From Zarea fungicola (taxonomy: Eukaryota; Ascomycota; Sordariomycetes; Hypocreales; Cordycipitaceae): DNA of 64,000 nt. The position numbers and the translations under genes are program-made. The notes beneath the pieces are model-generated. The model saw only the letters and a program-made list of their open reading frames with translations. It ran no database searches and had not been told where the DNA came from. Shown here in pieces: positions 2,867 to 54,181 of the stretch. The DNA lies in contig FWCC01000474.1 in the NCBI GenBank assembly GCA_900169235.1, forward strand, positions 17,637-81,636. The letters are read 5' to 3'. Each line of letters begins with the position of its first letter. The stretch's first letter is position 1.

Positions 2867-3876
2867 GGTGCTTATTTTGACTTGTGAAAAATATAATATT
2901 TAGAAACCTGATAGTACTACTGCATACCATCGCTGTGTGCTTAGGTACTGCATTTACTCTATCTGAGATTGAAAGTTAAATTTATGTCATTTCACGTTAA
3001 TTTTGTCGAAATGTATTTGTAATGCGGCCTTGGACCTCGGCATTTTGCAACGCAGCCAGCCACTGGTTCAGGGTTGCAACGGACACTGCGGACGCTACGG
3101 ACCCTGCGGGCGCTACGGACACTGAGGACGCGACGGACAATATAGAAAACTACTGCGGACGGACACTTGGGAACTTTGATGCTATTGTCATGTTGAAAAA
3201 GTGGATCGAGACTTATGCGTCTTAGACTCTTACAAAGAAATATCCCAGAGGATATCGACTTGGAGAAGAAATAGGTCTTGTGACTGCTGAGTCTGGTCAA
3301 GCAGCTCTTCCTGTGAGGCCTGACGCCTGCCGCTGATATGAGGACATCACAGCAGCTAAGGAGGAAAGAGGGGTTTTCCTATTCATTATTGACTTTTCGT
3401 TGACCTATTAATTTATATGTATAAAGGATGTTTTCCTCGTATAGCTATAGCTAGATTTTGAATTATAATAAGTTATAACTAGCATATAGACTAGAAGACA
3501 CTCCTCTTAGTACAGTGTCATATAACTGGTTGGGCTCATACAGCAATAGGCGCCGATCGTGGCTACCCTGCACATGCTCGTAGCTGGCAGCCCGGGCACG
3601 GACGGAGGCCTCAAAACTTTTCAGAAATGTACAGGCATCGCAAAGATTTAGTTTTGAACTATCGTTCCTTTACTTGCAGTTTGGTGACACTGTCGCCTCG
3701 AAGCAAAGTGTAGCCAGTTGAGCAGGGCAGCACAGTCCAACACGTGAGTATGGCATAACGCTGTGGTACATGCAATAAGTCCCTCTCCGACTGACCGTTT
3801 TGACATCATCGCTACGTTTGAGATTGAAACCACTATCAGTGAAAAAGTAATATTCAATTGTCGAGTTTAATTGGTA
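2867..3876. other. intergenic region with 9-bp minisatellite
   Basis: This separates the nitrilase start from the end of the next NmrA-like gene. It holds a seven-unit 9-bp tandem repeat (3081-3143). A short plus-strand frame (3022-3225) translates the repeat as an Ala-Thr-Asp-rich segment and continues for a further 27 residues, but nothing identifies it as a gene. The rest is AT-rich, and I see no other feature. Confidence 0.5.
3081..3143. repeat. 9-bp minisatellite, copy 1 (7 units)
   Basis: Seven consecutive 9-base units follow the consensus GGACRCTRC: GGACACTGC, GGACGCTAC, GGACCCTGC, GGGCGCTAC, GGACACTGA, GGACGCGAC and GGACAATAT. The array lies about 215 bases upstream of the nitrilase start codon. 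A second seven-unit array with the same consensus lies at 5143-5205, upstream of the neighbouring NmrA-like gene. Confidence 0.9.
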
Positions 3877-4965
3877 TTACAAAATTCCAGGCGACGGATC
3901 CTCGTAGCGCTTGAGAACTTTTTGTATGTTCTCGGGCTGAATCCTATCCCAAAGGCTTCCAAGCTTTTGCTGCTTTCCTCTCTCGTCTTCCAGTTCAAAC
4001 CACTGCTTAGCGCTTTTGATTCGGTTTGGGTAGATTTCATCCAGCAAGTCATAATCCCGCTTCACCAGGCCGTATCTGAAAACATTCCAAAAACCCGTAA
4101 AATTGTCCTTGGTTGACATGGTGCTCTGGTCATTGGGATCCGCGTTGTACCCAGCTGGTAAATCAGCGATGTATGGAAAATGACCCCGGCTCCAATACTC
4201 TTCCATGGTCATTTCAATGTACTGCGCTCTGTGTCCAGTAACAAGCTCAAAGGCGGCGGCCAACTCGTGAAACGTAATATGGTCAATGGCAACTTTCAAC
4301 TCCATTCCGTTGGACTGGTCGGTGTTATCGAACAACCAACGCACGTAGTAGCCGCAATCCTGCAGTGCAATAAAAGGCACTGCGCCATTACCCACCGGGA
4401 CGCGCCACGTCACGACACCGTCCTCTATAGTTGGTGACATGACAGTCGCAGCGCTGAGGCTCATGTCAATGTACGGCCCAGTGGTGAAGAGGGCCGCACC
4501 CATTCGCTCCCTGTTCTGCTGGGTTTGCCACTGGATCCATTCTCCAACCCTTCCTTTGCCATCTAAATGACCAGATCGAAACTTGGAGTCGTAGTTGCCC
4601 ATTTTCAGAGAATAGCCAAGATTTCCATAGACAAAAAACTTGATGCCTTGCTCAATGGCTATCTCGTATATTCGCATCGCCCAGTACATTTCTGTCTTTT
4701 CTCCCGTGTTGAATCCATCAATGTTCACGTAAGCCCCCTCGCAATTTCTGAAACCCTCACGAAGCGTGGTCTCGTTTGCGAATGAGCCAGCAAGTAACTC
4801 TATGTTACCAAGCGCCAGTAGTGCCTTGGCTCGCTGAGACGAAGTGTCGCGCGTAAGCACTCGTACATGATATTTCTTATCATGGACAAGCCCTCGGACG
4901 ACTGGTAAGCCCTGTGCCCCTGTGCCCCCAATGACGAAGATTTTTGCGCCTACGTCGAGCCTCAT
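3877..4965 (-). CDS. NmrA-like NAD(P)-binding protein (complete paralogue)
   Basis: Intronless 362-codon gene with ATG at 4963-4965. The Rossmann motif GGTGAQG follows a short N-terminal strand (IFVIGGTGAQG, residues 9-19). A region typical of the NmrA/HSCARG group follows, with blocks NIDGFNTGEKTEMYWAMRIY, ERMGAALFTTGPYIDM, VTWRVPVGNGAVPFIALQD and DNFTGFWNVFRYG. These blocks are shared with the partial gene at 1-1049, so the two are paralogues separated by the nitrilase. No signal peptide or membrane segment is visible, so it is probably cytosolic. The role could be a reductase in a local pathway or a redox-responsive regulator; the sequence does not separate these. Nothing suggests decay. 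Confidence 0.9.
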   Translation of the reverse strand: MRLDVGAKIFVIGGTGAQGLPVVRGLVHDKKYHVRVLTRDTSSQRAKALLALGNIELLAGSFANETTLREGFRNCEGAYVNIDGFNTGEKTEMYWAMRIYEIAIEQGIKFFVYGNLGYSLKMGNYDSKFRSGHLDGKGRVGEWIQWQTQQNRERMGAALFTTGPYIDMSLSAATVMSPTIEDGVVTWRVPVGNGAVPFIALQDCGYYVRWLFDNTDQSNGMELKVAIDHITFHELAAAFELVTGHRAQYIEMTMEEYWSRGHFPYIADLPAGYNADPNDQSTMSTKDNFTGFWNVFRYGLVKRDYDLLDEIYPNRIKSAKQWFELEDERGKQQKLGSLWDRIQPENIQKVLKRYEDPSPGIL

Positions 4966-5549
4966 TGCGAATATTAACCGATTTAAACAATCAATATTTT
5001 TCTAAAGGACGGGCCAAGTATATTGACAATGGTCTTGCCCGGATTTAAATAGTCTAGGTACAGTGTGCAGTGCCAATGCCATGCAGGTAAATGCAGCATG
5101 CTTGGTAATGTAGAGCGATTGGACTCTTTCCATGGCTGGTATGGACGCTACGGACACTCCGGACGCTACGGACACTCCGGACGCTACGGACGTTACGGAC
5201 GCTGGTGCTCCTGACGCTGAGCCTCTGCACTACCTGGTGCTGCGAGCAACCATTCGCCAACTGCCATACTTGTTTGGATAGGAGTAAGGAAAAGAAAAAG
5301 CTGTGGAAAACGGTCTGACCCAGCTTCATGCCCAAGTTACACTGTTTTGTGGCGCAATTGAGCAGTATCCTTGCCTGCAAAAAATAGTATCACCTAATGA
5401 GCGTATAATAGAAGATTACTATCGACCAATGAAATCGAATATTCTACTCAACTGATAAAAGAGTTTTAGAATACAAAAGTAACCATTCGCGAGAGTCGCC
5501 ATTCGCATACAAACAGGCAGATACCTTATATACCATCGTTCAAATTTGA
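4966..5549. other. intergenic region with 9-bp minisatellite
   Basis: This is the promoter side of the NmrA-like gene ending at 4965. An AT-rich TATTTAAAT-like stretch (minus strand, around 5044-5052) is a possible core promoter. The second 9-bp array lies at 5143-5205. A plus-strand frame from 5133 reads the array as Asp-Ala-Thr-Asp repeats and stops near 5280. I see no convincing gene. Confidence 0.45.
5143..5205. repeat. 9-bp minisatellite, copy 2 (7 units)
   Basis: Seven 9-base units of the same consensus as the array at 3081-3143: GGACGCTAC and GGACACTCC alternate, ending GGACGCTAC, GGACGTTAC, GGACGCTGG. The array begins 178 bases upstream of the NmrA-like start at 4965. Confidence 0.9.
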
Positions 5550-6455
5550 TTATGTGTACAGTTGAACCAAATTATTCCCAATATTCAGCTCCCATTCTCT
5601 CGATTGATTTTTTGACAAGGCTAGAAATTTCGCGATATTGCCTTCTACAGTCGAAAGTGCAGCAAGTTTATTATATCGATTCATGTCATTCTGGATTGAC
5701 TGACGAGACGGCGCTTGCTCCGCAATTCCCTCTTTTGTTGCCCGAATTGCTTCAATAGGAAATAGAGCTATTCTCTTTGCCAATGAATCAACATGTTCTC
5801 GCAACGCCGCCGCGGTTGAAAAGGCTGAATTGACCCACCCAACTCGTGCGGCCTCCTTGGAATCGACCTGCTTCCCCGAAAGTAAATACTCTGCGGCCCG
5901 TCCTGGACCAATCAACTTGGTCAGTAATTGCAATCCACCAACGTGGATTACACCAAGTTCTACTTCGGGAGCACTAAACTGAGCCTCGGGGCCAGCGAAT
6001 CGCATATCCATGTGCAAGAGGTGCTCATTGCCAGCGCCCCACGCTCGACCGTTGATCTCTGCTATAAAAATTGTCGGAATGGATGATAGGAGTGCCAAGT
6101 TGTCAAAGTACATTGTGAGAATATCTGTGACGTCTAATCCTTCAAATTTAGGGGTAAAAATATTGGCATCAAGATTCGTGATATAGAACTCCGGTATATC
6201 GCTAGAAATGACAACAACCTTTGTAGAGTTTTGGTCGTTGAGTGACTTCAGCAATGTATTAAGCTCGACGACAGTGTTGGCGTTCCACAGATTGATAGGT
6301 GGGTTCGATATAGCCACACGAACGGCACTGCAATCACTATTGATGCATGCCTTTCGCAGATAGCGGTATGGCCAAGGTGTGGCAACGCATGGGTGAAGAG
6401 CAATAAAGAGGAAGAGCCAAAACGCCAACATTGGCATCTCTCGCATACGAGGCAT
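5550..6455 (-). CDS. secreted crotonase-fold (enoyl-CoA hydratase/isomerase-like) protein
   Basis: Single-exon frame. I start it at the ATG at 6453-6455 (301 aa) rather than at the far upstream ATG, because a TATAAA (6523-6528, minus strand) lies about 70 bases upstream of it. Residues 1-26 form a classical signal peptide: a basic start, then a hydrophobic core FWLFLFIAL, then a small-residue cleavage region. The rest is a crotonase domain with the oxyanion-hole segment INGRAWGAGNE and the block AQFSAPEVELGVI. Glu144 and Glu164 align with the two catalytic glutamates of enoyl-CoA hydratases, so activity looks possible. Crotonases normally act on CoA esters inside the cell, so a secreted form is odd. 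It may have been recruited for CoA-independent chemistry, or the hydrophobic N-terminus may be a membrane anchor. It lies within the minus-strand cluster of NmrA-like and nitrilase genes. Confidence 0.85.
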   Translation of the reverse strand: MPRMREMPMLAFWLFLFIALHPCVATPWPYRYLRKACINSDCSAVRVAISNPPINLWNANTVVELNTLLKSLNDQNSTKVVVISSDIPEFYITNLDANIFTPKFEGLDVTDILTMYFDNLALLSSIPTIFIAEINGRAWGAGNEHLLHMDMRFAGPEAQFSAPEVELGVIHVGGLQLLTKLIGPGRAAEYLLSGKQVDSKEAARVGWVNSAFSTAAALREHVDSLAKRIALFPIEAIRATKEGIAEQAPSRQSIQNDMNRYNKLAALSTVEGNIAKFLALSKNQSREWELNIGNNLVQLYT

Positions 6456-7667
6456 GATAGGTCGACTGTACAGATGAAAGGTGGATATGAGCACTGGGGA
6501 AAATGATACCAGATGTGGCAGATTTATACATGCTACAGAGCAAAGTAAACATTGTGTAATCATTGCATGTTGCAAGACATAGTGCCTCTGTTATTGCCGG
6601 CTGCTGCGGACATTCAAACATTTGTAAGCCGAGTACAAGTTCAATTGGGTGGAATTTACGGACATTATACTTATCTGTAAGCCAATGGTACGCTGTATTG
6701 TGTAAGGCTTGCGGACTACGCGTCTCTGCATATGAGGTAGTGCCGTGCAAAGCCGTAGTAGTTAGTTATAGAAGAAAAGGTGTAGATTAAGTAAACCAAA
6801 CGTGTGAACTGGGACTGTTAGAGACACCCTTGTGGCGTGGCTCTCATGATTCAGCTATACGCGAAATTTTAGTGCGGGAACAACAGTAGAACTGGCAAGC
6901 AAAGCCTTTGCCTCTTTCAAATCACATTTCACCTTATAACATCCCGTCGCGTCTCAGTCCCTATGCATCTATCCTTTTGACTATGGAGACTTGCCTCAAG
7001 ACTCGTGAGAGGGGACGCGTTTGACGGCTCGCTGTTGACAGTGCCGCGACTCGGGCAGAAAAAGCAGCTTCTGGTTCTACATTGTCACATGAGCAATTGA
7101 CACCAACGGAATTATGGCCGCTACTGTCTTAAGGGGCATGTTATAGAGTATGTATCCATAGAGAGTCAACATTTTTCCCTGCAGTAATGTTGCGCGGAGT
7201 GAGATTATCGACTCATGAAGGAGGTCGGCTTCGGCGGAGCCTGCAATTTTGCAGGTAAGCTACATAGTAACTTGAGTATGATTCCCAGGGCCACCCCATT
7301 AGCGGGCATCCTCACACCCCCTTCAGAGCACCCTTTCCTAACCCACCCACACATTCGTATATATGAGATTTTTTTTGCTCTGCGTGATGATTAATTACAC
7401 ATGTGAACCTGCAGCACCAACTACAGCGTCTTACCATCAGGATCTGGTGCCGCTGGTAAATCCCGATGCAGCCAAACCAAGAGTGGCGATTTTGATACAT
7501 CAAAAGTTTATTAATGCTACTTGTTTATGTTTTAAAAGTTGAGAGTTGGGTGTGGAAATGTCAATTGAAAACGGTAAACTCAAATAGTGCTTGCCGGAAG
7601 GCATGTACATAATCTTTTGCTTGCATTTCTCGTTGTGTCATGTCCGAGTGTGCATCCTTTTCCTAGC
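6456..7667. other. intergenic region, no gene seen
   Basis: This is the promoter of the crotonase-like gene plus about 900 bases without a supportable gene. Short frames on both strands lack motifs. A small perfect hairpin, CCTGCAATTTTGCAGG, lies near 7240-7255. Nothing else stands out. Confidence 0.4.
6523..6528 (-). promoter_or_regulatory. TATA box of the crotonase-like gene
   Basis: TATAAA on the minus strand, about 70 bases upstream of the ATG at 6455. It supports the shorter start, since the upstream in-frame ATG (6575) would lie before it. Confidence 0.5.
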
Positions 7668-8767
7668 TCATTGGCCAGTAAGCTTTTCAGAGAGAGCTTT
7701 CCAAAACGATGCGTCTGCTATCCTAGCACTAGGTGACTGGGTCGATCTTAACGCACTTTCAATGCTCTCTTTCAATGGTATAGGCTGAAAGTCCGGATAC
7801 AAAGACTTTGCGTTCAAATATCCTAGAAACTCAGCTCTATGAGGCTGATTGTCTCCCCTCCCCCAAACTGAATGCATATATTGAATTAGTAATCGATCCA
7901 GCAGAGGATATGCATCGTTGTGAGCAGCATTAGACAGCTGCTCAGTATTCACTGCCGTAACAGGCACTTTTTCCCCAGTTACTCTCTCCGTTAGTGCAAT
8001 TGCATCGTTCTGGGTGAGAACCTCCCCGTACGCAAAAACTCGCTTATTGAGAGTTCGGGGATCCACAATGATGCGTGCAACATAGTTTCCGATATCGATT
8101 ACCGAGGTTAAAGCTGCTGGCGTGTCTCCCTGATCGATGAGAAACGTGGTAGGAAATAGCGCGGCGTGATCCAGTCTACCAGATGGCACTCTTGGTATCA
8201 TTGCCTCATGCCACCAACCAACGTCAATAAAAGTATAAGGTAAATATATCTTCTTGATATGATCAAGCACGTCTTCTTTCTATAAAATTGTTAGTTACGC
8301 TTGTCAACGTCGAGTCTAATTAGACAAGTGGCAGTGACTGACCCATTCACGCATAATCATAACTCCGCGCGGAGGCGATACAGTGTGCCATGCGTTTGGA
8401 ACAAATCGACTGACACCAGCTTTCAGAGCTGCATTGGCTAATGTAATTTGCTCAGCTGAACTCTCTGCACCAAGTGAACAGATAACAATGTTAATATCAG
8501 CCAGTGCTGATACAAGATCTTCTTGCGGGCCATTCAAATCAACGACAGAAATTTTTAATCCTTGACGAACGAAATCGCTGGATGAGAGTTTCGTCACCGA
8601 TGACGCGCGAACAAGAGCAGTTACCTCCTATGCAAAATATTAATTCTGCGTCCGTCACATAAGTGTTGCGTGCTTACGAAAGTAGGACTGGCGCACGCAA
8701 ATAGAGCCGCAATAATGCTCGACCCGGTATTGCCAGTAGCGCCTAGGACTGCGACTTTAACACTCAT
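7668..8767 (-). CDS. NmrA/isoflavone-reductase-like NAD(P)-binding protein, three exons
   Basis: Rebuilt from exons 8767-8678, 8627-8343 and 8279-7668, with introns of 50 and 63 bases, both phase 0. The second intron has a TAACTAAC branch site. The joined frame encodes 328 residues. Exon 1 carries the Rossmann motif in VAVLGATGNTGSSI, so splicing is needed to restore the cofactor site. Exon 2 contains DINIVICSLGAESSAEQITL and SRFVPNAWHTVSPP, typical of the isoflavone-reductase branch, and exon 3 the substrate-side half (YTFIDVGWWHEAMIPR). It probably reduces an aromatic or phenylpropanoid-like small molecule with NAD(P)H. It is more distant from the other two NmrA-like genes than they are from each other. 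Third NmrA-superfamily gene in 9 kb, same strand. Confidence 0.87.
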
Positions 8768-44253: not shown

Positions 44254-47251
44254 CTATTGTCGAGTCCTCCGCTTTGAGCTGTATACCGCTTTCGTTGAAG
44301 AAATCGACTCGTCACTCCAGTTCTCTGATGACTCATAGGCAGCTAGAGCCTGGCTTGTGAGTGGAATGAATGCGGTCTCCTCGTCCTGGTAGGCATGGTT
44401 ATCCGTCTCGGAAAGGAAGAAATCGTCCTGGAAGAAATCATGCTGGAAAGAATCGTCCGGCTGATTAGAGCCCTGCACCGGAAATGACTGGTGAGCTGCT
44501 GCCTGCTGCGGCCGTGGTCTGTGTGGTGTATGGCCTTTTTGTTCCACTTGGTGCTCCCCAAAGAATTGTTGTTGATGCTGTGAGTGTGGCTGCTGGGCTC
44601 TTGCAATGGCATCAGCAGCATCGCGCGATCTGGAAAACGCCACGGCTTCGCCTCCAGGTCCAATCTTTAATTCCTTATACAAGTCAAGTATGACATCATT
44701 TAGCATCTGCTTTGGGGAGCGCCGGTAGTATAAATCAACGGAAACCCTCTCGAACGCGTTCTTGGTTCTGGCCCTGCCGCGCTGCTGCTCCTTGTGCGTC
44801 TGTGTCCTAGTTCCCTGAGGATTGGATACTCTGCGGAAATTGACATCAAATTGCGCCAGCTGCCATTCAAACCTGCCATCCCTCTCGCCGCTCTTGATTC
44901 TCTCCGTGACCCTATCCATCTGTGTCTGCATAGTGACCGGAAGAGCTGCCTTTCGAGCCTCCAAGGTTTCTCTTTCCCTACTAGTCACCAAGCCTAGGCT
45001 CACTTTAATGTCATCTTGGGATAGACTTTTCCTCGTCACAACTTTAACCCTCTCCCAGGGCTGCACCTCTTTGTAGTCAGCGCTACCTTCACGGTCACCT
45101 TGAGATTTTTCCAAGCGAACCATGCGGTAAGTCGTCAAAGCTCGAACTGCCTCTGGAATTGTCATGTCGCGAATGTCTTCCACATATTGGGTGGGCCGCC
45201 ACTGCGATCGGCTAGGAGCTTCTGATGATGAAGCTTCAAACCGAAGCTTTGCTGCACCAAAAACTTTCGCGCCAAAGTAGTCTCGCAGTTTGCTGTCATT
45301 CAAAAGGGCTGGTTTTTCTGGCCCAGTTCCTGTCCTGTTTGGCCCCAAGGATATGGAAGACCAAAATCCCCATTCGTCGCTACTGGACACAGTTGTGAAT
45401 GCAGAAATTCTGGATGCATAAATTCTAAATGCAGGATCTTCGAATTCGTCGCAAATGGAGGTTGTTGATCTCAGTTGCACAGTGTCTGGGAATTGTGACC
45501 AGTCGCCGGAATCAAACGATGGCGGTTTCTTGCAGTCGCATCCTAGCCTCTTGCATTGCAGCTTGGTTGCGGTCCACTGTCCATAAAGAGTGTCGAGACC
45601 TTCTATATTTTTGTAGTTGTCGTCGCCTCGATCAGCCCCCGAGTTCATGTCATCTTCCTCGTCTTTGTTATTGGACTCATACCGTGGGGGTAATAGTATC
45701 AGGGCTGTTTCCACCAAATGCTTCCGGATGTGCTTGGTAAGCTCGGTAACTGCTCCGTCGCTCTCTCTGAGAGGATAGTTCTGCTCAATTCTCTCAGGGT
45801 AGCCACCACAAAACGGACAATCGGTTAAACACGGTCGGTCTAATCGACTGTGTTTAACAACCGTGGAACGCCCAAGGTCTGTCATTGCTTCGCCATGTTT
45901 CTCGTTCAGATGACTCTCCAATAACAACTGAGATGGGAATCTTTGTGAGGGAGTGGCACCAGGTTCACAGTACAAACAATGCCAGGCCGGTTCGCTGTGA
46001 GCTGACACAAGATGTTCTCGCCATGCAGTGTACGACCCGGTATACGAAAACGGGTCCTTGCAGGATCGATATACACAGAAATACGGTGCAAGGTCATGAA
46101 TAAGGTGATTTCGCCACTGTTCCTCCGTACTCACTTCTGTTGCGGGGCAGGTCAGCAGACAGTATGGGCAGTCGAACGACATGCTGGCTTCATCAATCGC
46201 TGGAGCTTGCGGAAGTTTTGCGACCGAGATTTCGACTGACACCACTGACTCTGGTCGCCTCTCCGCCTCGAATTTAGTCGCTACCGTTTGTGACAGCTGG
46301 GTCCTCTGCGCCACACTCTCTGCTGTTCTGCTCTGTCGTATCACTGGCTCTTGAAATTTCTCCCCCGTGTTTCCCGCTTGTGTTGCCGCTCTGTCCACGT
46401 TCACTTCTTTGTATTGATTTCTATTTCGTGAATCGTCTCCTGTGTCCCTACAGAGAGCGAGTTGCTTGATTTTATGGCGCTCCAAATACATAAATCGGGA
46501 GCGTCGCAGCGCAATGGACTCCCCAGCTCGCCTGTGCAGCCATTCATAGGCTCTCGGAAAGGCATGAATCGCTCTTTCTGTTGCATAATGCTCCGTCAGT
46601 TTGTGAATTTGTTCATTGTTTGGCAACCGAATGAAGCGATCAACGCGTTGTTGCCGATGGCGTGCCGCGCTGCGGTACAATCCGACTCCAAGCTGGCGAA
46701 GGGTGGTAATATTCTTTTCGATACTTTGCCAATTCCCAGTTGTACTCGGCTCATCTTTGCCGCCCTCTATTGGCTCTCGGATAAGCCAGTCAGGGATTTC
46801 AGATCGATCTGACGACGAATCGGTGTCGGTGCTCCGTTCACTGTCCTCATCGAGGCAAATAGTACAGTCAAGTTGCCTTTCTAGAACATGTTCAGCTCAC
46901 GCATAGTTATTGGGTTTGGCTTGGAAAATATTTAAAATATTTACCGAGATTGCGTGAAAGGCCCTCCAGTAGACGTTCCGTAAGGCTGCTGATGTCGGGA
47001 ATGTCCTTCAATCTTGCAGCTAGAGATTGGTGGCCGAGTCGAAAAGCTCCCACAGCAGCCGCCCAAATATTAAAGCTTGCGAGATGTCTGGTGGCCTCCT
47101 TGTCATATATGCACAGCTCTTGCAGCAGATCTTTGCATCTCCCAACCAAACGCTGGATATCCCCAAGCAAATTATCCGCAGTCACGGGGAGCTGTTCTAG
47201 ATTGTCAGACAGCGGAGGCGCGATCGAGTGCTCGTCTGTAGCTTCTTCCAT
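44254..47251 (-). CDS. AcuF-type C2H2 zinc-finger protein, two exons
   Basis: Exons 47251-46945 and 46880-44254 join in frame to 977 residues. The N-terminus is helical and acidic (DNLEQLPVTADNLLGDIQRL). The centre has four atypical Cys/His fingers of the fungal AcuF-like type: FDCPYCLLTCPA...HLIHDL, YFCVYRSCKDPF...HLVSAH, WHCLYCEPGATPS...HLNEKH and TDCPFCGGYPERIE...HIRKHLVETALILLPP. A helical region follows, then a Gln/His-rich low-complexity stretch and an acidic C-terminus (DSFQHDFFQDDFFLSETDNH). Proteins with this finger block are numerous in filamentous ascomycetes and often sit next to NLR-type and cell-death genes. Their role is unknown, and the name derives from annotation, not from an oxidoreductase activity. 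It is divergent from the DUF7580/subtilisin gene over a promoter of only 276 bases, suggesting shared regulation. Confidence 0.82.
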
Positions 47252-47527: not shown

Positions 47528-50407
47528 ATGGCAGCTAGCTGGTTTGGCGTTCGTGCTTCTCCTCCAGTGCTGAGCGAGCGGGAGGTTTTACGGCGACTGC
47601 TCCATATCTTGCCTGCGTTCACATCTCTCGCAAAATGGGATATGGATGATTTGGGCCGCGCTGATGCGGTGGAAAATAAAGATTTCCGTACTCGGCATGA
47701 TTTTTATAACATCCTATATCCCAAACTCTCAAGCATACAAGCAGCGTTGACGATACTAGATCCCGATCTTACAGAAATCACTCCCAATACGCTTTTGGCG
47801 GTTTTGGACGAGTTTGAGAAAAGCTTTTTATCGTGGAAGAAGGAAACCGACAGTATTTATAAGCATCTTGAGTTTCAGAGGCACAGAGATGATAGGCATC
47901 CGAAGCTAAAGGCAATGCAGGCTATTCTGCCTGAAAACAAGTTTGAGATTGATAGCCAAGTGCTTGGCTCTCTCCGTGGGATTATACGCCTTTATCATAA
48001 GAAGGCAGAGGATCGCGACAGCGTCATTTCTGCTCTTGATCAAGCCTTCAATTACCTCATGTCAATGCAACCGCGCGGGCAATCGGAGACGAACTGCCCA
48101 TTGCGCTTCTCAGATTACCCTGTCAAGCACATGCGCAAATTCTCCAGAGGGCTCATCGTAGTGCTACAGGAGCGCTGGAAGTGTACATGTGGAAGTCCAT
48201 GTCATCGGCGCCGCGTCTTGAAACTTGATCTCACGCAATATCAGCGGTTTGAAACAGGGCCTTGCCGTGAGCTGACCGTAATGCAGGACAAGGCACGATT
48301 CCGAGTCATGTTTCCCACTGGAACTGGCGCTCTGCATTGGAAGGGAGCGGATATATCAGTGAGAGATAATCAGTAAGATAATTTCCGGCTGTCACCTTGC
48401 AATCTTCATTCTTCACGAACACTGTCATCTCGGCTATGATACTCATCTTCATTACAAGGCCCAGGGATGTATGCGAGGAAATAATTCACAGTCTCTGCCG
48501 TATTATCGAGCAGACTAGTGATAAAACACTAACGAGTCTGGCTATTTTCAATGAACGACTATGGCATCTTCAATCCAGATACGACAATAAAAACGCAGAA
48601 AGGATACCCGATGGGGAATTCCAATCGTTGGAGGACCTTTTAGAACCATCAACCAGCAGTGGTAACTCACCAATGTCAAAAATCGACTTGAAACAGCGCA
48701 CAATCCTGTGCTTTGTCTTGGCAACATCGTTCTTCCACGCCTTCGACATCAAGAGCTCATGGATCCGCATCACAGCCGCAAACGTCTGCTTTCGGAGGAC
48801 AACCCGGAATCTGAGTATTGTGAAACCATATCTAAGCATAAACATAACCAATTCAGGCGGGGCTCAATTGGTCAGGAAGCTTCAGGAAATTCATTCTTAC
48901 CCCAGCCTCCTCACTCTGAGCATAATTCTATTTGAAATTTATCGGGGAAGACAGGTAGTCATCGAGACTGGAAAAGATAGATGCGCCGAGGTTCTTAGCA
49001 TATACGATGACTGGGAAGAGAGTATCAGCGAGTGCTCCAGTCTTATACCGATCGGTTGCCTCCAGGCAATGCGTGCTTGCATTGGGCCAGAACAACTAGA
49101 GAAAGCTGGCCTCATATCAAAAAACGTGAGGGACATGGATGTGCGCTTCTACATATTTGAAAGAATCATATATCCCCTCGGCGAGGTTATTTCAAGCATA
49201 TACGAACAGTCTCTACACCAACTACACGACAGCACACCTGAAGAACCAATGACTGCCCGTATCAGTAGCATGGATTCCGGCCGGGAACGAGCAGGCCAAC
49301 GCTGGATAAGATACCTCAAGGATGCCCAGCAAGTACTATGGCACCGTCATTTTGAGAATCTGGATGATAAATCAGCCACTGTAAAGGTTGCTGTTCTCGA
49401 TACAGGGCTTCAACTGCCCGAGACATTTCAGCACAATTATGTACAATATGGTTATGTCGCGGCCAGCAAATGCAAGAGTTTCTGCAGTAAGGAGCATGAT
49501 GCTACGCCATGGAACCGCGATAAAGATGGTCACGGGACGCAAATCTGCCAGATTCTTCATGATGTTGCCCCAAATGCTGAAATCTATGTAGCAAAAATTT
49601 GCAAGACGCAAAACGACTTTGGAACCCAAAGGTGGGCTACGGAGGTGCAACAAAATGCTGCTACTGTAAGGACAACCTAAAACAGCAAGTCAGCAACCAT
49701 GCTAACGTTTTCAACTGAAGGCAATCAGGCATGCATCGACAGTTTGGGGTGCGGACATGATAATCATGAGCTTTGGCTTTGATCGCCCAGTCAGTGTCAT
49801 AAATACGGCAATTACCGAGGTTCTCAAGCTGGACAGGCCGCCACTCTTTTTCGCGGCGACGCGTAACGATGGCGCCCACAAACCCATGGCATGGCCAGCC
49901 TCAGATCCTCGCGTCTTTGGCATAAGTTCAACTGACGGTGACGGTACACCATCCACCTTTGATCCCAATGACGAAGACTCATACCCTGTGCTCTACGCTT
50001 TCGGAGACGGCATCAAAGTATTCTCACCTGTAGGCAAGCAGGAGAAACTAAAGAGGCCTGGGGTGGGCGGGCACAGAGATCAACAAGAGCACAGAGAGCC
50101 AGAGGAGCAATACGTATCTGGAACCTCGTTCGCTGCACCTACTGCCACGGGCCTAGTGGCAATTCTGCTTGGGTTTGTCCGCATGGCTGTGCAGGCGTGC
50201 TCAGAGCAAGACCGCATTAAATACGCCAATGTGCCGTCGGATCTGCAAAGATTTGATGGTATGCTAAAAGTTTTGCAGCGACGGATGAGGCAGACGCACT
50301 TGCATGGAGGAACAAAGAGTTTGCTGCCATGGGGATTCCTGCAGAGCTCTCAGGTGTCGAATAACGGCATCCTGAGTAAAGTACATAAAACTCTAAACTC
50401 TGCTTGA
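47528..50407 (+). CDS. intracellular subtilisin-like (S8) protease with DUF7580-like N-terminus
   Basis: Exons 47528-48372, about 48459-49665 and 49721-50407 join to 912 residues. The start is the ATG at 47528 (MAASWFGVRAS); there is no signal peptide. Residues 1-550 are an all-helical region with the fungal DUF7580 pattern (SSIQAALTILDPDLTE, FLSWKKETDSIYKHLE, later LDLLEPS-type and LQEIHSYPSLLTLSIILFEI blocks). The C-terminal third is an S8 subtilase with all catalytic residues: Asp596 in VAVLDTGLQ, His640 in DGHGTQICQIL and Ser820 in SGTSFAAPTATG, plus the AIRHASTVWGADMIIMSFG segment restored by the last splice. The acceptor of intron 1 may be 48458 or 48464 (two residues' difference). Proteases of this build are paired with gasdermin-like genes in fungi, as HET-Q2 is with HET-Q1. 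The next gene downstream fits that partner. Confidence 0.87.
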
Positions 50408-50858
50408 TTACAAGTAAAAACTAAATGCCAAGTTAGCAGGTGGTAAACTGGAATCAAATGTTACAGATGGAAGTAGTATATACCCAGTTGCATTTAATTT
50501 TGATAATGAATGATATGAACAACGGCAGTGCCAAAATCGTAGCGATTAACAGCGACCCCCGCTTCAGGTGATAAAGAGGCAGAACGACCATGCCATCATG
50601 TGACCATAGTAATAGAATGCTGGCAAGACACTGAACATGACAGCCTTGGTGGATATCTTTCGCCTGTTCCAGCCCAGTGGCTCAGCCCCGTCATCTTGCT
50701 ACCCAACTCGAGACTGCAATGGTACTCCTGAATGAACCTTGGAACCCCTAACGATTGATATGCATTGAGCAAAGATTAGGCGATAACTACGTTATACGAC
50801 AGATAATCCGAGCCACAGTAGTTGTGCTACCGTATTCCATAAATCCTTGCTACTTACA
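50408..50858. other. intergenic region between protease and gasdermin-like gene
   Basis: 450 bases between two co-oriented genes, AT-rich, with no other frame of note. It should hold the terminator of the protease gene and the promoter of the downstream gene. Confidence 0.4.
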
Positions 50859-51644
50859 ATGGCCAGGAACTTGATGCCCAAATGCATACCCTGTCCAAAC
50901 TGGGAGATTTGGGCATACACCGACGTCGTAGTACTCGGCCGTCTCATCACCAACCCTAAAGACCCGGAAAGCCAGGTATTTCGTGCCGGTGTGCTGATAC
51001 CAGAAAAAACATACGAAGGTGCCAAAGTCGGTTGGCAAATGGTCTATGATTCGACTATCGGAGGCAAAATTGGCCTGTGGGCAAAGTGCATGCAGATCGT
51101 GACGGGAGGCCTGACTCTCGCCCATATCCGCTCACTGGCAGCAAAGTTGGAGTTTGAGTTTCTAAGAACTCGCTACTTTTTGCCCGACAAGGATTACATT
51201 AAAAATGTGGTACAAGATCCTGGTGTCCAGGCACACTTTAAAACGACGCATCGGCGCAAACCAATCTACTTAATCACAGGTATCAAGATTGCAGAGAACC
51301 CAAAGGAAACACTGCACGTCGGGAGAGAGAATGAGCTTACGAGCGAGTTAAAGGCCGATGCAACTTCATTCGGCGCGCCAGTCGAGGCGGGCCCTGAAGG
51401 CAGTGGTACCTCAAAGAGAAACATGACTATTACCACCAAGGCGTCAAACGACTACATCTTTGCATACAGCCTGATGCGGATCAGTGTCAAACATGACAGA
51501 TATGATGAAGAGACAATCAAGAGCGAGCCTTATATTAAAGGCGCGGCGTTTGGCCTCACAGATGCAGAGAAGGCGGTTGAATATGAGGCCGAGCCTTTCA
51601 ATGACCTTGGCTTTGACGAGTACGATGAAGAAGACACCGCATAA
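50859..51644 (+). CDS. candidate gasdermin-like pore-forming protein (HET-Q1/RCD-1 type)
   Basis: Intronless frame of 261 residues from the ATG at 50859 (context TTACAATGGCC). It has no signal peptide and no long hydrophobic helix. Amphipathic strands alternate with helices, as expected for the pore-forming half of gasdermins. The segment PIYLITGIKIAENPKETL lies in a central sheet followed by a flexible Gly/Ser/Thr stretch (about residues 165-190) and another strand pair (YIFAYSLMRISVKHDRY). The last ~35 residues (after GAAFGLTDAEKA) form an acidic tail rich in Glu and Asp with several Phe. In known fungal gasdermin-like proteins a short C-terminal tail is removed by the partner protease to release the pore former. 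Length, tail and position 450 bases downstream of an S8 protease all fit. Similarity is judged by eye and needs a profile search. Confidence 0.6.
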   Translation: MARNLMPKCIPCPNWEIWAYTDVVVLGRLITNPKDPESQVFRAGVLIPEKTYEGAKVGWQMVYDSTIGGKIGLWAKCMQIVTGGLTLAHIRSLAAKLEFEFLRTRYFLPDKDYIKNVVQDPGVQAHFKTTHRRKPIYLITGIKIAENPKETLHVGRENELTSELKADATSFGAPVEAGPEGSGTSKRNMTITTKASNDYIFAYSLMRISVKHDRYDEETIKSEPYIKGAAFGLTDAEKAVEYEAEPFNDLGFDEYDEEDTA

Positions 51645-51888: not shown

Positions 51889-54181
51889 CTATTCCCAGCC
51901 CCATGGAAGTACACTACCTTGTGCGGCATCATCCAGCTCGTCCCAGTTGACAATTTGCGGGCCGCCTATATCCCAATCAATTGAAGCCGAATCCGTCCAC
52001 GGCATGCTCGATAGGGTGCTACCCGTCTCTCGACTATTTGCATCAGGTAGCTCGTTTGGGAGACGTACCGCTTCGTCCACTGCAGGCTGACGACTGGCAC
52101 CTGTTCCAGTCGTCTCGCTGGCTATATTCCCACGAGTTTCCCGGGAATAATCAGCCAGCGTCTTTGCCGTCAGCACATCAAAGGCATCTCTCTTCTCCTT
52201 GAACGCCGGAAAGTGCTCAACCAGCCCCCAAAGAACGTTACTCGCTGCGTGTATAAAACCTTCGAATTCCTGCAGCGTAAATAGGCTCCTCACCGCTTCG
52301 ACCTCGACATACGAATACGCCAGTGCGGTTCCTGCATCAAAGATATTTTCCACAGCTTGCCAGAAGAGATAAATATTCTTTTCATGATAGAACTGGGTGT
52401 ACAAGGTAATCACCCTGGCCGACGCCGACGCCAGCTCTGTCATCGCAGTCGCGGACGGCTGCGGGATTCTCGGCGAGGGCCGGTATAAAAAGACTAATGC
52501 GCGCTGAAACGTTAGCTCAAAGCGGGAGGGTGTGACTTTTGCGCCTCTAACGTCGGTTCCTGGATAATGTTCGGCGTGAAAGTCGGTGAACCACTGTCGG
52601 AGGCGCTGGTGCATGCTCGCCTGCCACTGGGCGTAGTCCAAGGGGAGGAATCCAGCGGGAGTTTGGTCTCGGAGGATTGTGAGCATCTCTGACTGCAATT
52701 TTCGGTACTCGAACCAGTGTCTGCAGTATATTTTGACATTGCTGGATGGGTCAGAGGCAGGGGTGGCAATGCCTTCAGCAGTGATGTACTTGTCGTCGAC
52801 GAAGCTTGGATACTACTCAGAATAGATGTAAGCATTTGAAACAACAGGCAAGGGAAAAGTCTAAAGTTTTCGCACCTGAGCCGTTATCGCAGTATCCGAC
52901 AAACACGTCGGTCGGCCGGTCGCAATCGCAACATTTCTGTCTAGCGAGTACGCGACCCAAAACGTGCGACGCATCGTGTCGAGGGTCAGACAATCCAAGG
53001 AGCCAGCCGGAGGATCCTCGTGTAGTCGGAGCTCAACCGCGCGTCGAAGGGCGAGCCCAATCATGTTCCAGCCACCAAAGTTGACAGGATGCATGTAGGC
53101 AAACTGTGCCATGAGGAGCAGCGCCTGCACACCCTCGACGTCGTTTGGTAGCGCGCCATCCTCCAGTGTGCGCACCGCCATTTGGTAGTAGTGGTCGCTC
53201 ATCAGTGTTGGAAATCGCGCAGGATTTTGCTTCTGCAAGGTCAACAGCCCAAGTGCGAGGACAATATTTACAAAGAAGCGGGCTGTTTTGAGCGCTTCCT
53301 TGTCGCGGATGTGGCCATCTACATTCGCAGGTTGCTGTGATTCTTCATTATAGAGGAGGTCTAGCTTCTGGTGGAAAGTGGGCTCGTGGAGGAGTGGTAA
53401 ACTGAAATTCGCAAAGGCAAAATACGCCTTGATAAAGGCCTCTGCTGTCTTGCGCTCTGGCAGTGCGGTCGAGATCAGGCTGAGGGTATCGCGTAGGTAT
53501 GAGGGGTTACCGTCTTCGTCATCCAACGGCGATTTTCGCTGTAAATGAGGCACAGAGTTGGTACGGCCAAGGTCCATTATCCCAGCTAGCAGGGCCTTGG
53601 AGAAGGTTGGGTCATCAAATGACTGCGAAGAGGCCGCCTGCGCCATGCGCAGCACAGGCTCAATCATCGCCTGATCCTCCGCATGCTTGCTGGTAGCCGC
53701 CTGCGTATTTTCTGGTGCACTTTCAATAATAATATCATTTTGCGCATGTGAGCGACCAATTGTGTCGACGGTCGAGGAAGTGGGAGACACATCTGCTCGA
53801 CTACTGCTTTCCGCATCCTGGATACCAAGACGTTGGAGCTTTGCTCTAAGCAGTGCTACTTCATTTTCTAGCTCATATATATAGCTTGAATATGGTTCAA
53901 TGATTATTAAAGCTGTTCAAAGTAAGGCGAAGACGTGTGGCTACTACCTTCGAGGGACGCTTCTCTGCGTAGCGGGGTCATAGCCGATACACTCAACGCC
54001 CGCAGTGTGGCACTGCCCACAGGCCTGCCGATGAAAGCATCAGCGAGGGGATGGCTAATTTGCCTGATTTATAACGTACTGGTAGTCTCTGGTCGCAGCG
54101 CTTCTTGCGTCGGCGACAGCGCAGACAGGCGGTGATACTCGATCTAGCGACCGAGGCTGGCCTTTGCCCGGCCTCGGGCAT
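51889..54181 (-). CDS. Zn2Cys6 transcription factor with Fungal_trans domain, four exons
   Basis: Exons 54181-54080, 54024-53948, 53884-52876 and 52812-51889 join in frame to 703 residues. The zinc cluster spans the first splice: Cys19, 22, 29, 36, 39 and 46 (ACLRCRRRKKRCDQRLPAC, then GQCHTAGVEC). A leucine-rich coiled coil follows (YIYELENEVALLRAKLQRL), the usual dimerisation element. The middle region has the PF04082 signature (NFGGWNMIGLALRRAVELRL, TMRRTFWVAYSLDRNVAIAT, GRPTCL). It is a nuclear regulator. It is divergent from the allantoate-permease-like gene at 55165, with 983 bases between the starts, so it may control that transporter. Confidence 0.9.

What the first reader, a model, noticed from the sequence alone, without database searches (positions are those of the whole stretch)
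47528..51644. Candidate protease-gasdermin cell-death pair (HET-Q2/HET-Q1 type)
Seen: an S8 protease with an intact Asp/His/Ser triad, a DUF7580-like helical N-terminus and no signal peptide, followed in the same direction by a 261-aa protein with no hydrophobic helix, a central PIYLITGIKIA strand and an acidic C-terminal tail. Known: in Podospora anserina HET-Q1 (gasdermin-like) is activated by the subtilisin-like HET-Q2, and fungal gasdermin-like genes are usually next to protease genes. Inference: this is such a two-gene unit, and the tail after about residue 225 is the inhibitory part.
Basis: partly seen in the sequence, partly recalled or inferred. Interest (0 to 1): 0.9.

Follow-up and report, generated by a model that had tools for sequence, protein, structure and literature searches.

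The report
Fungal gasdermin beside its predicted protease
Two neighbouring genes of a filamentous fungus look like a self-destruct unit, a pore-forming gasdermin and the protease expected to switch it on; this kind of pair is already known, but here the protease carries an inactive-kinase-like sensor that makes it worth a look.

The parts
47528..48372 (+). Q2L protease gene, exon 1: N-terminal region of unassigned fold and start of the DUF7580 region
   Evidence: Open frame from ATG 47528; GTAAGA donor at 48373; aligns with eight relatives; no Pfam family at cut-off
48459..49665 (+). Q2L protease gene, exon 2: most of DUF7580 (kinase C-lobe-like) and the first half of the S8 domain (Asp and His)
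   Evidence: Pfam PF24476 6.1e-21, PF00082 2e-5; acceptor 48458 or 48464; kinase-like model
49721..50407 (+). Q2L protease gene, exon 3: second half of the S8 domain (Asn, Ser)
   Evidence: PF00082 8.9e-7; intron 49666-49720; SGTS motif from residue 817
50859..51644 (+). Fungal gasdermin, 261 aa
51549..51551 (+). Predicted P1 residue Phe231 of the gasdermin (inference)
   Evidence: F or Y in 47 of 47 family members; HET-Q1 is reported cut at P1 residue F238, losing 40 residues (PMC10989679 passage)
51552..51641 (+). Predicted inhibitory acidic tail, residues 232-261
   Evidence: Residues 230-261 have net charge -11; this stretch is net negative in 47 of 47 family members; pLDDT under 50 from residue 227

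Best explanation
It is a two-gene regulated cell-death unit. The downstream gene makes a fungal gasdermin held inactive by a short acidic C-terminal tail. The upstream gene makes a cytosolic sensor protease: an N-terminal region of unassigned fold, a kinase-like but catalytically degenerate DUF7580 domain, and an S8 protease. A signal sensed by the first two parts frees the protease, which cuts the neighbour shortly after the last strand of the pore domain (most likely after Phe231) and releases the tail; the pore domain then assembles in the plasma membrane and kills the hyphal compartment. Shown here: gasdermin homology and fold, protease homology and triad, the pairing, the conserved acidic tail. 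Inferred: the cut, its site, the gating by the kinase-like domain, the pore, the death. The trigger is unknown.
For: Gasdermin. Protease. Pairing in this genome: 7 of 7 DUF7580-S8 genes with a gasdermin-profile ORF nearby; reversed ORFs gave no hit; 0 of 18 control stretches, 15 distinct places; whole-genome searches with four gasdermins found none at the 24 S8 places without DUF7580. Pairing elsewhere: 12 of 25 DUF7580-S8 relatives share contig length and species with a gasdermin relative, 6 of these 12 with neighbouring locus tags. Matched distances: Mantel r 0.90 over 14 pairs, 0 of 9,999 permutations. Tail. Precedent: HET-Q2 and HET-Q1; about 80% of fungal gasdermin genes clustered with a protease gene, about 63% with an S8 gene (PMC10197012 section 15; PMC12881547 section 20).
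Against: No direct evidence of cleavage, pore or death. The gasdermin model is moderate (mean pLDDT 64, 47 sequences). Two of the seven pairings (C196, C451) rest on weak profile hits (E 4.2e-4 and 1.4e-5), and the C196 and C144 DUF7580 matches run over stop codons (three and one), so introns or decay there. One gasdermin of this genome (C327) has no S8 match on its contig and no protease recognised nearby (by eye), so the link is not absolute. The distance correlation is confounded by species descent. In the window itself the tail departs from the family pattern at several places. RCD-1 shows that some fungal gasdermins need no cleavage (passage).
Confidence: 0.85

Rival explanations
1. The pair is an allorecognition (heterokaryon incompatibility) locus: strains differ in protease or gasdermin alleles and fused cells die.
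For: HET-Q1/HET-Q2 and RCD-1 are such loci (PMC12881547 section 20). P0077, a protein of unnamed source, has an S8 half 78% identical to this one behind TPR repeats instead of DUF7580, which hints that sensor ends change quickly.
Against: Both genes lie together in one assembly, unlike the het-Q idiomorphs. No population data were available.
Confidence: 0.2
2. The gasdermin is activated without cleavage, by a partner or an allelic variant as in RCD-1, and the protease has another substrate or removes the gasdermin.
For: RCD-1 is the best sequence and structural match and is not controlled by proteolysis (PMC12881547, passage).
Against: Linkage to an S8 gene in this genome and in other genera; an aromatic residue at the start of an acidic tail in 47 of 47 family members.
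Confidence: 0.1
3. The two genes are unrelated neighbours, or the cluster is decayed.
For: Expression is unknown; the intron 1 acceptor is not certain.
Against: Repeated pairing; no stop in either reading frame; triad motifs intact.
Confidence: 0.03

Closest known systems
Fungal gasdermin/Q2L two-gene clusters (Clave et al. 2022, known here only through PMC10197012 section 15, PMC12881547 section 20 and passages of PMC10989679)
   Same: Gasdermin gene within 10 kb of a gene for an S8 protease with an extra sensor-like region; short C-terminal tail
   Different: The sensor here is DUF7580, kinase-like by model, after a region of unassigned fold; the texts I saw name WD40, ANK, TPR, NLR and 'kinase-like' partners; no paper held contains the name DUF7580
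HET-Q1 / HET-Q2 of Podospora anserina
   Same: Gasdermin plus S8 protease; profile match 4.1e-7 to the HET-Q1 pore chain; aromatic residue at the start of the tail
   Different: HET-Q2 is 388 aa (PMC10989679 passage) against about 912 aa here; het-Q1 and het-Q2 are idiomorphs, these two genes sit together
RCD-1-1 / RCD-1-2 of Neurospora crassa
   Same: Best sequence and fold matches of the gasdermin
   Different: RCD-1 acts by pairing of two allelic variants without cleavage; here a protease gene is adjacent
MLKL/RIPK-type (pseudo)kinases
   Same: The DUF7580 model retrieves kinases; the MLKL pseudokinase (6vbz_A, row 31), a chain of the RIPK3-MLKL complex (7mon_B) and RIP2K are among them
   Different: They are not the top rows (TNNI3K, B-Raf and FAK are); likeness of one lobe in a moderate model; the N-terminal region was not shown to be a four-helix bundle; the output domain is a protease

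Membership tests
Fungal gasdermin (RCD-1/HET-Q1 family) | Sequence homology to a characterised fungal gasdermin | tested here: met
   RCD-1-1 E 4e-5 single sequence; profile 5.5e-10 RCD-1-1, 1.8e-9 RCD-1-2, 4.1e-7 HET-Q1
Fungal gasdermin (RCD-1/HET-Q1 family) | Gasdermin N-terminal fold | tested here: met
Fungal gasdermin (RCD-1/HET-Q1 family) | Short C-terminal inhibitory tail removed by proteolysis | tested here: inconclusive
   Tail present, low-confidence in the model, acidic in 47 of 47, aromatic residue at its start in 47 of 47; inhibition and removal not testable
Fungal gasdermin (RCD-1/HET-Q1 family) | Membrane binding and pore formation | not testable with these tools
   Needs an experiment
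Q2L protease (HET-Q2-like) | Protease domain with intact catalytic residues | tested here: met
   PF00082 over the cut-off in both exons; triad motifs, invariant in 19 relatives. A sequence search of solved structures with the S8 part found nothing at 1e-3
Q2L protease (HET-Q2-like) | Gene within 10 kb of a gasdermin gene | tested here: met
   451 bases between stop 50407 and ATG 50859; repeated in paralogues and other genera
Q2L protease (HET-Q2-like) | Cleaves and activates the neighbouring gasdermin | not testable with these tools
   Needs co-expression
HET-Q1/HET-Q2 incompatibility pair | The two genes are idiomorphs, different genes at one locus | tested here: not met
   Both genes are adjacent in the same contig of one genome
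HET-Q1/HET-Q2 incompatibility pair | Polymorphism causing death on fusion | not testable with these tools
   No other isolates held
Protein kinase-like fold (DUF7580) | Kinase C-lobe fold | tested here: inconclusive
Active protein kinase | Catalytic Asp of the HRD motif | tested here: not met
   0 of 19 rows with letters there have Asp five residues before the N-I/V-C-F motif; 5 of 24 rows are not scored. The register is inferred by eye from the motif; the motif itself is recalled

The most novel reading that the evidence does not exclude
DUF7580 is a pseudokinase. A whole class of fungal gasdermins is run by single-protein sensors (N-terminal region, pseudokinase, S8 protease) that join the switch type of necroptosis (MLKL/RIPK-like) to the executioner of pyroptosis. 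The sensor end is exchangeable: a close relative of this protease's S8 half sits behind TPR repeats.
Probability: 0.4. Interest if true: 0.65.

Novelty: new member of a known kind. Interest (0 to 1): 0.42.

Why it matters
What fungal gasdermins sense is open; the review section read here calls the nature of the stimuli a major open question (PMC12881547 section 20). This genome holds seven proteases of one architecture, each with a gasdermin candidate nearby, so sensor specificity could be compared within one strain. If DUF7580 is a pseudokinase, that gives a testable switch and a function for an unnamed Pfam domain. No gasdermin family of Pfam matched any of the 47 gasdermins scanned, and the names that sources give them are 'hypothetical' or 'uncharacterized' apart from one bare gene id.

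Tried and rejected
Rejected: an unrelated profile family for the 261-aa protein (no Pfam family at E<=1; over 47 family members seven families match one to three members each, best E 0.0014, none a gasdermin). Rejected: chance neighbours. Rejected: a third gene of the unit. The divergent 880-aa frame upstream (44254-46896, -) matches no Pfam family at E<=0.1, and no ORF of 150 aa or more lies upstream of the protease in the closest paralogous pair (L030 8035-9901).

Led nowhere: the N-terminal region against solved structures gave only designed helical proteins, cytochrome b562 and one Ctap5 chain, at E 0.016 and above, so a HeLo/four-helix bundle was neither shown nor excluded; the DUF7580 part of this protein alone against solved sequences, no hit; the spliced S8 part against solved sequences at 1e-3, no hit, so the S8 assignment rests on Pfam, motifs and relatives. 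No paper held contains the name DUF7580. Clave et al. 2022 is not held.

Limits: a profile search of the whole genome was not possible; gasdermins were sought genome-wide with four single proteins and with the profile only in fetched stretches, so the genome's total may be higher, and C451 was found by profile alone. Profile controls cover 12 of the 24 S8 places without DUF7580; they were not picked at random (8 are the tool's best S8 matches, with 1.5-kb flanks only; 4 have 9.9-kb stretches), and the rest could not be fetched. Of the 18 control stretches three lie inside others. The broadened profile includes five of the paralogues it rescored, so only its C451 and C119 rows and its control result are independent. 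The script used 46 of 52 gasdermins and 23 of 29 protease relatives; two of the six proteases left out (P0080, P0081) do carry both domains, and checked by eye against the lists none of the six shares a contig length with a gasdermin, hence 12 of 25. CHAT or other protease families beside the C327 gasdermin were not searched.

Full report
WHAT IS THERE. The window lies in a 43.1-Mb, 456-contig genome of a filamentous fungus. A citrate synthase of the same genome is 93% identical to those of Trichoderma barbatum and Metarhizium acridum, so it is probably of the order Hypocreales (inference; the placing of those two genera is recalled). At 47528-50407 (+) lies a three-exon gene for a protein of about 912 aa. 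Intron 2 is clear; intron 1 has two acceptors that fit best, 48458 and 48464 (chosen by eye from the candidates). Pfam finds DUF7580 (6.1e-21) and a subtilase domain split over exons 2 and 3, both halves over the curated cut-off. The subtilase motifs are intact: VAVLDTG from residue 592, DGHGT from 638, FAATRND from 728, SGTSFAAP from 817, and the catalytic residues are invariant among 19 relatives. At 50859-51644 (+) lies the 261-aa ORF.

THE PAIR IS REAL. The genome has 10 DUF7580 matches. In 7 of them an S8 match follows on the same strand within 1 kb (contigs C54, C216, C144, C258, C119, C196, C451); that each is one gene is inferred. Whole-genome searches with two gasdermins found five gasdermins, beside the proteases of C54, C216, C144, C258 and C119, plus a weak sixth at C327. 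The family profile on the fetched stretches also found gasdermin ORFs beside the proteases of C196 (E 4.2e-4) and C451 (1.4e-5). C196 is independently matched by the C327 gasdermin (1.4e-9), and C451 gains a second piece with a broader profile (3.9e-4). So 7 of 7 have a candidate, two on weak evidence. The C196 and C144 DUF7580 matches run over three and one stop codons, by introns or decay. Reversed ORFs gave no hit at E<=10. Control stretches around 12 of the 24 S8 places without DUF7580, and the 3 DUF7580 places without S8, gave none (18 stretches, 15 distinct places, 110 kb of which about 11 kb count twice). The four whole-genome protein searches placed no gasdermin at any of the 24. Gene order varies: tandem in C54 and C216, converging in C144, C258, C119 and C451, diverging in C196; so the association is unlikely to come from one frozen duplication. 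Against the reading: the C327 gasdermin lies beside citrate synthase, with no S8 match on its contig and no protease recognised among its large neighbouring ORFs (by eye; CHAT not searched).

ELSEWHERE. Of 29 relatives of the protease, 25 carry both DUF7580 and S8. Six of the 12 have neighbouring locus tags, for example CEP54_015752/015753 and INS49_012716/012717. Over 14 pairs (these 12, the window and C216) the distances of gasdermins and proteases correlate (Mantel r 0.90, 0 of 9,999 permutations reach it); species descent accounts for part of this. Inside this genome the closest paralogue of the window's gasdermin (51%) and the closest paralogue of its S8 domain (49-52%) are both at C216.

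THE TAIL. Residues 230-261 carry net charge -11 and the rest +5; the stretch is net negative in 47 of 47 family members (mean -9.9). Its commonest pattern is F-D-I-E-E...G-F-x-D, which the window's copy follows only in part. Position 231, six residues after the last predicted strand (218-225), is F or Y in 47 of 47. HET-Q1 is reported to be cut at F238 and to lose 40 residues (PMC10989679, passage); the family's stretches counted from position 230 have a median of 41 residues, the window's 32. I therefore predict a cut after Phe231. Position 242 is also F or Y in 47 of 47 and cannot be excluded. In paralogues C258, C119, C327 and C451 the equivalent place is not clearly aromatic (by eye; C196 was not judged).

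HOW IT WORKS. By precedent (HET-Q2 on HET-Q1; about 80% of some 1,900 fungal gasdermin genes clustered with protease genes, about 63% with S8 genes; PMC10197012 section 15), the protease, once released by its sensor, removes the tail and the gasdermin opens pores. Every step after transcription is inferred here.

KNOWN OR NEW. It is a new member of a known kind, the fGSDM/Q2L two-gene cluster. It is not a HET-Q1/HET-Q2 idiomorph pair. The added points are the within-genome pairing of a whole protease architecture, the kinase-like reading of DUF7580, and a sign of sensor exchange. Papers: I read section 20 and passages of PMC12881547, section 15 and passages of PMC10197012, and passages of PMC10989679; other papers I saw only as search listings; Clave et al. 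2022 I know only through the reviews.

Noticed in passing
L030 (C216) 3710-4516 (-) and 5053-8034 (-): A second, tandem copy of the same pair (gasdermin 51% identical), with open protease frames in the same order; the closest paralogous unit.
   Followed up: partly
P0077, residues 532-662: A protein of unnamed source has an S8 stretch 78% identical to the window protease but TPR repeats in place of DUF7580: a likely exchange of the sensor, or an assembly chimaera.
   Followed up: partly
L036 (C327) 4207-5154 (+): A divergent gasdermin beside citrate synthase with no protease recognised among the large neighbouring ORFs and no S8 match on the contig: an orphan, perhaps controlled in another way.
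   Followed up: no
L050, L051, L052: Three DUF7580 genes without an S8 match and without a gasdermin-profile ORF in 9.9 kb; DUF7580 therefore has other partners.
   Followed up: partly
Alignment A1: No gasdermin family of Pfam matches any of the 47 fungal gasdermins at E<=1: an annotation gap for this family.
   Followed up: partly
window 44254-47251 (-): Divergently transcribed frames with C2H2-like cysteine/histidine patterns (by eye), first ATG at 47251, 276 bases before the protease ATG; no Pfam match to the 880-aa frame; no ORF of 150 aa or more in that place at C216.
   Followed up: partly
window 51889-53916 (-): Frames of a fungal-specific transcription factor gene (PF04082 in the second frame) converging on the gasdermin gene.
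   Followed up: no
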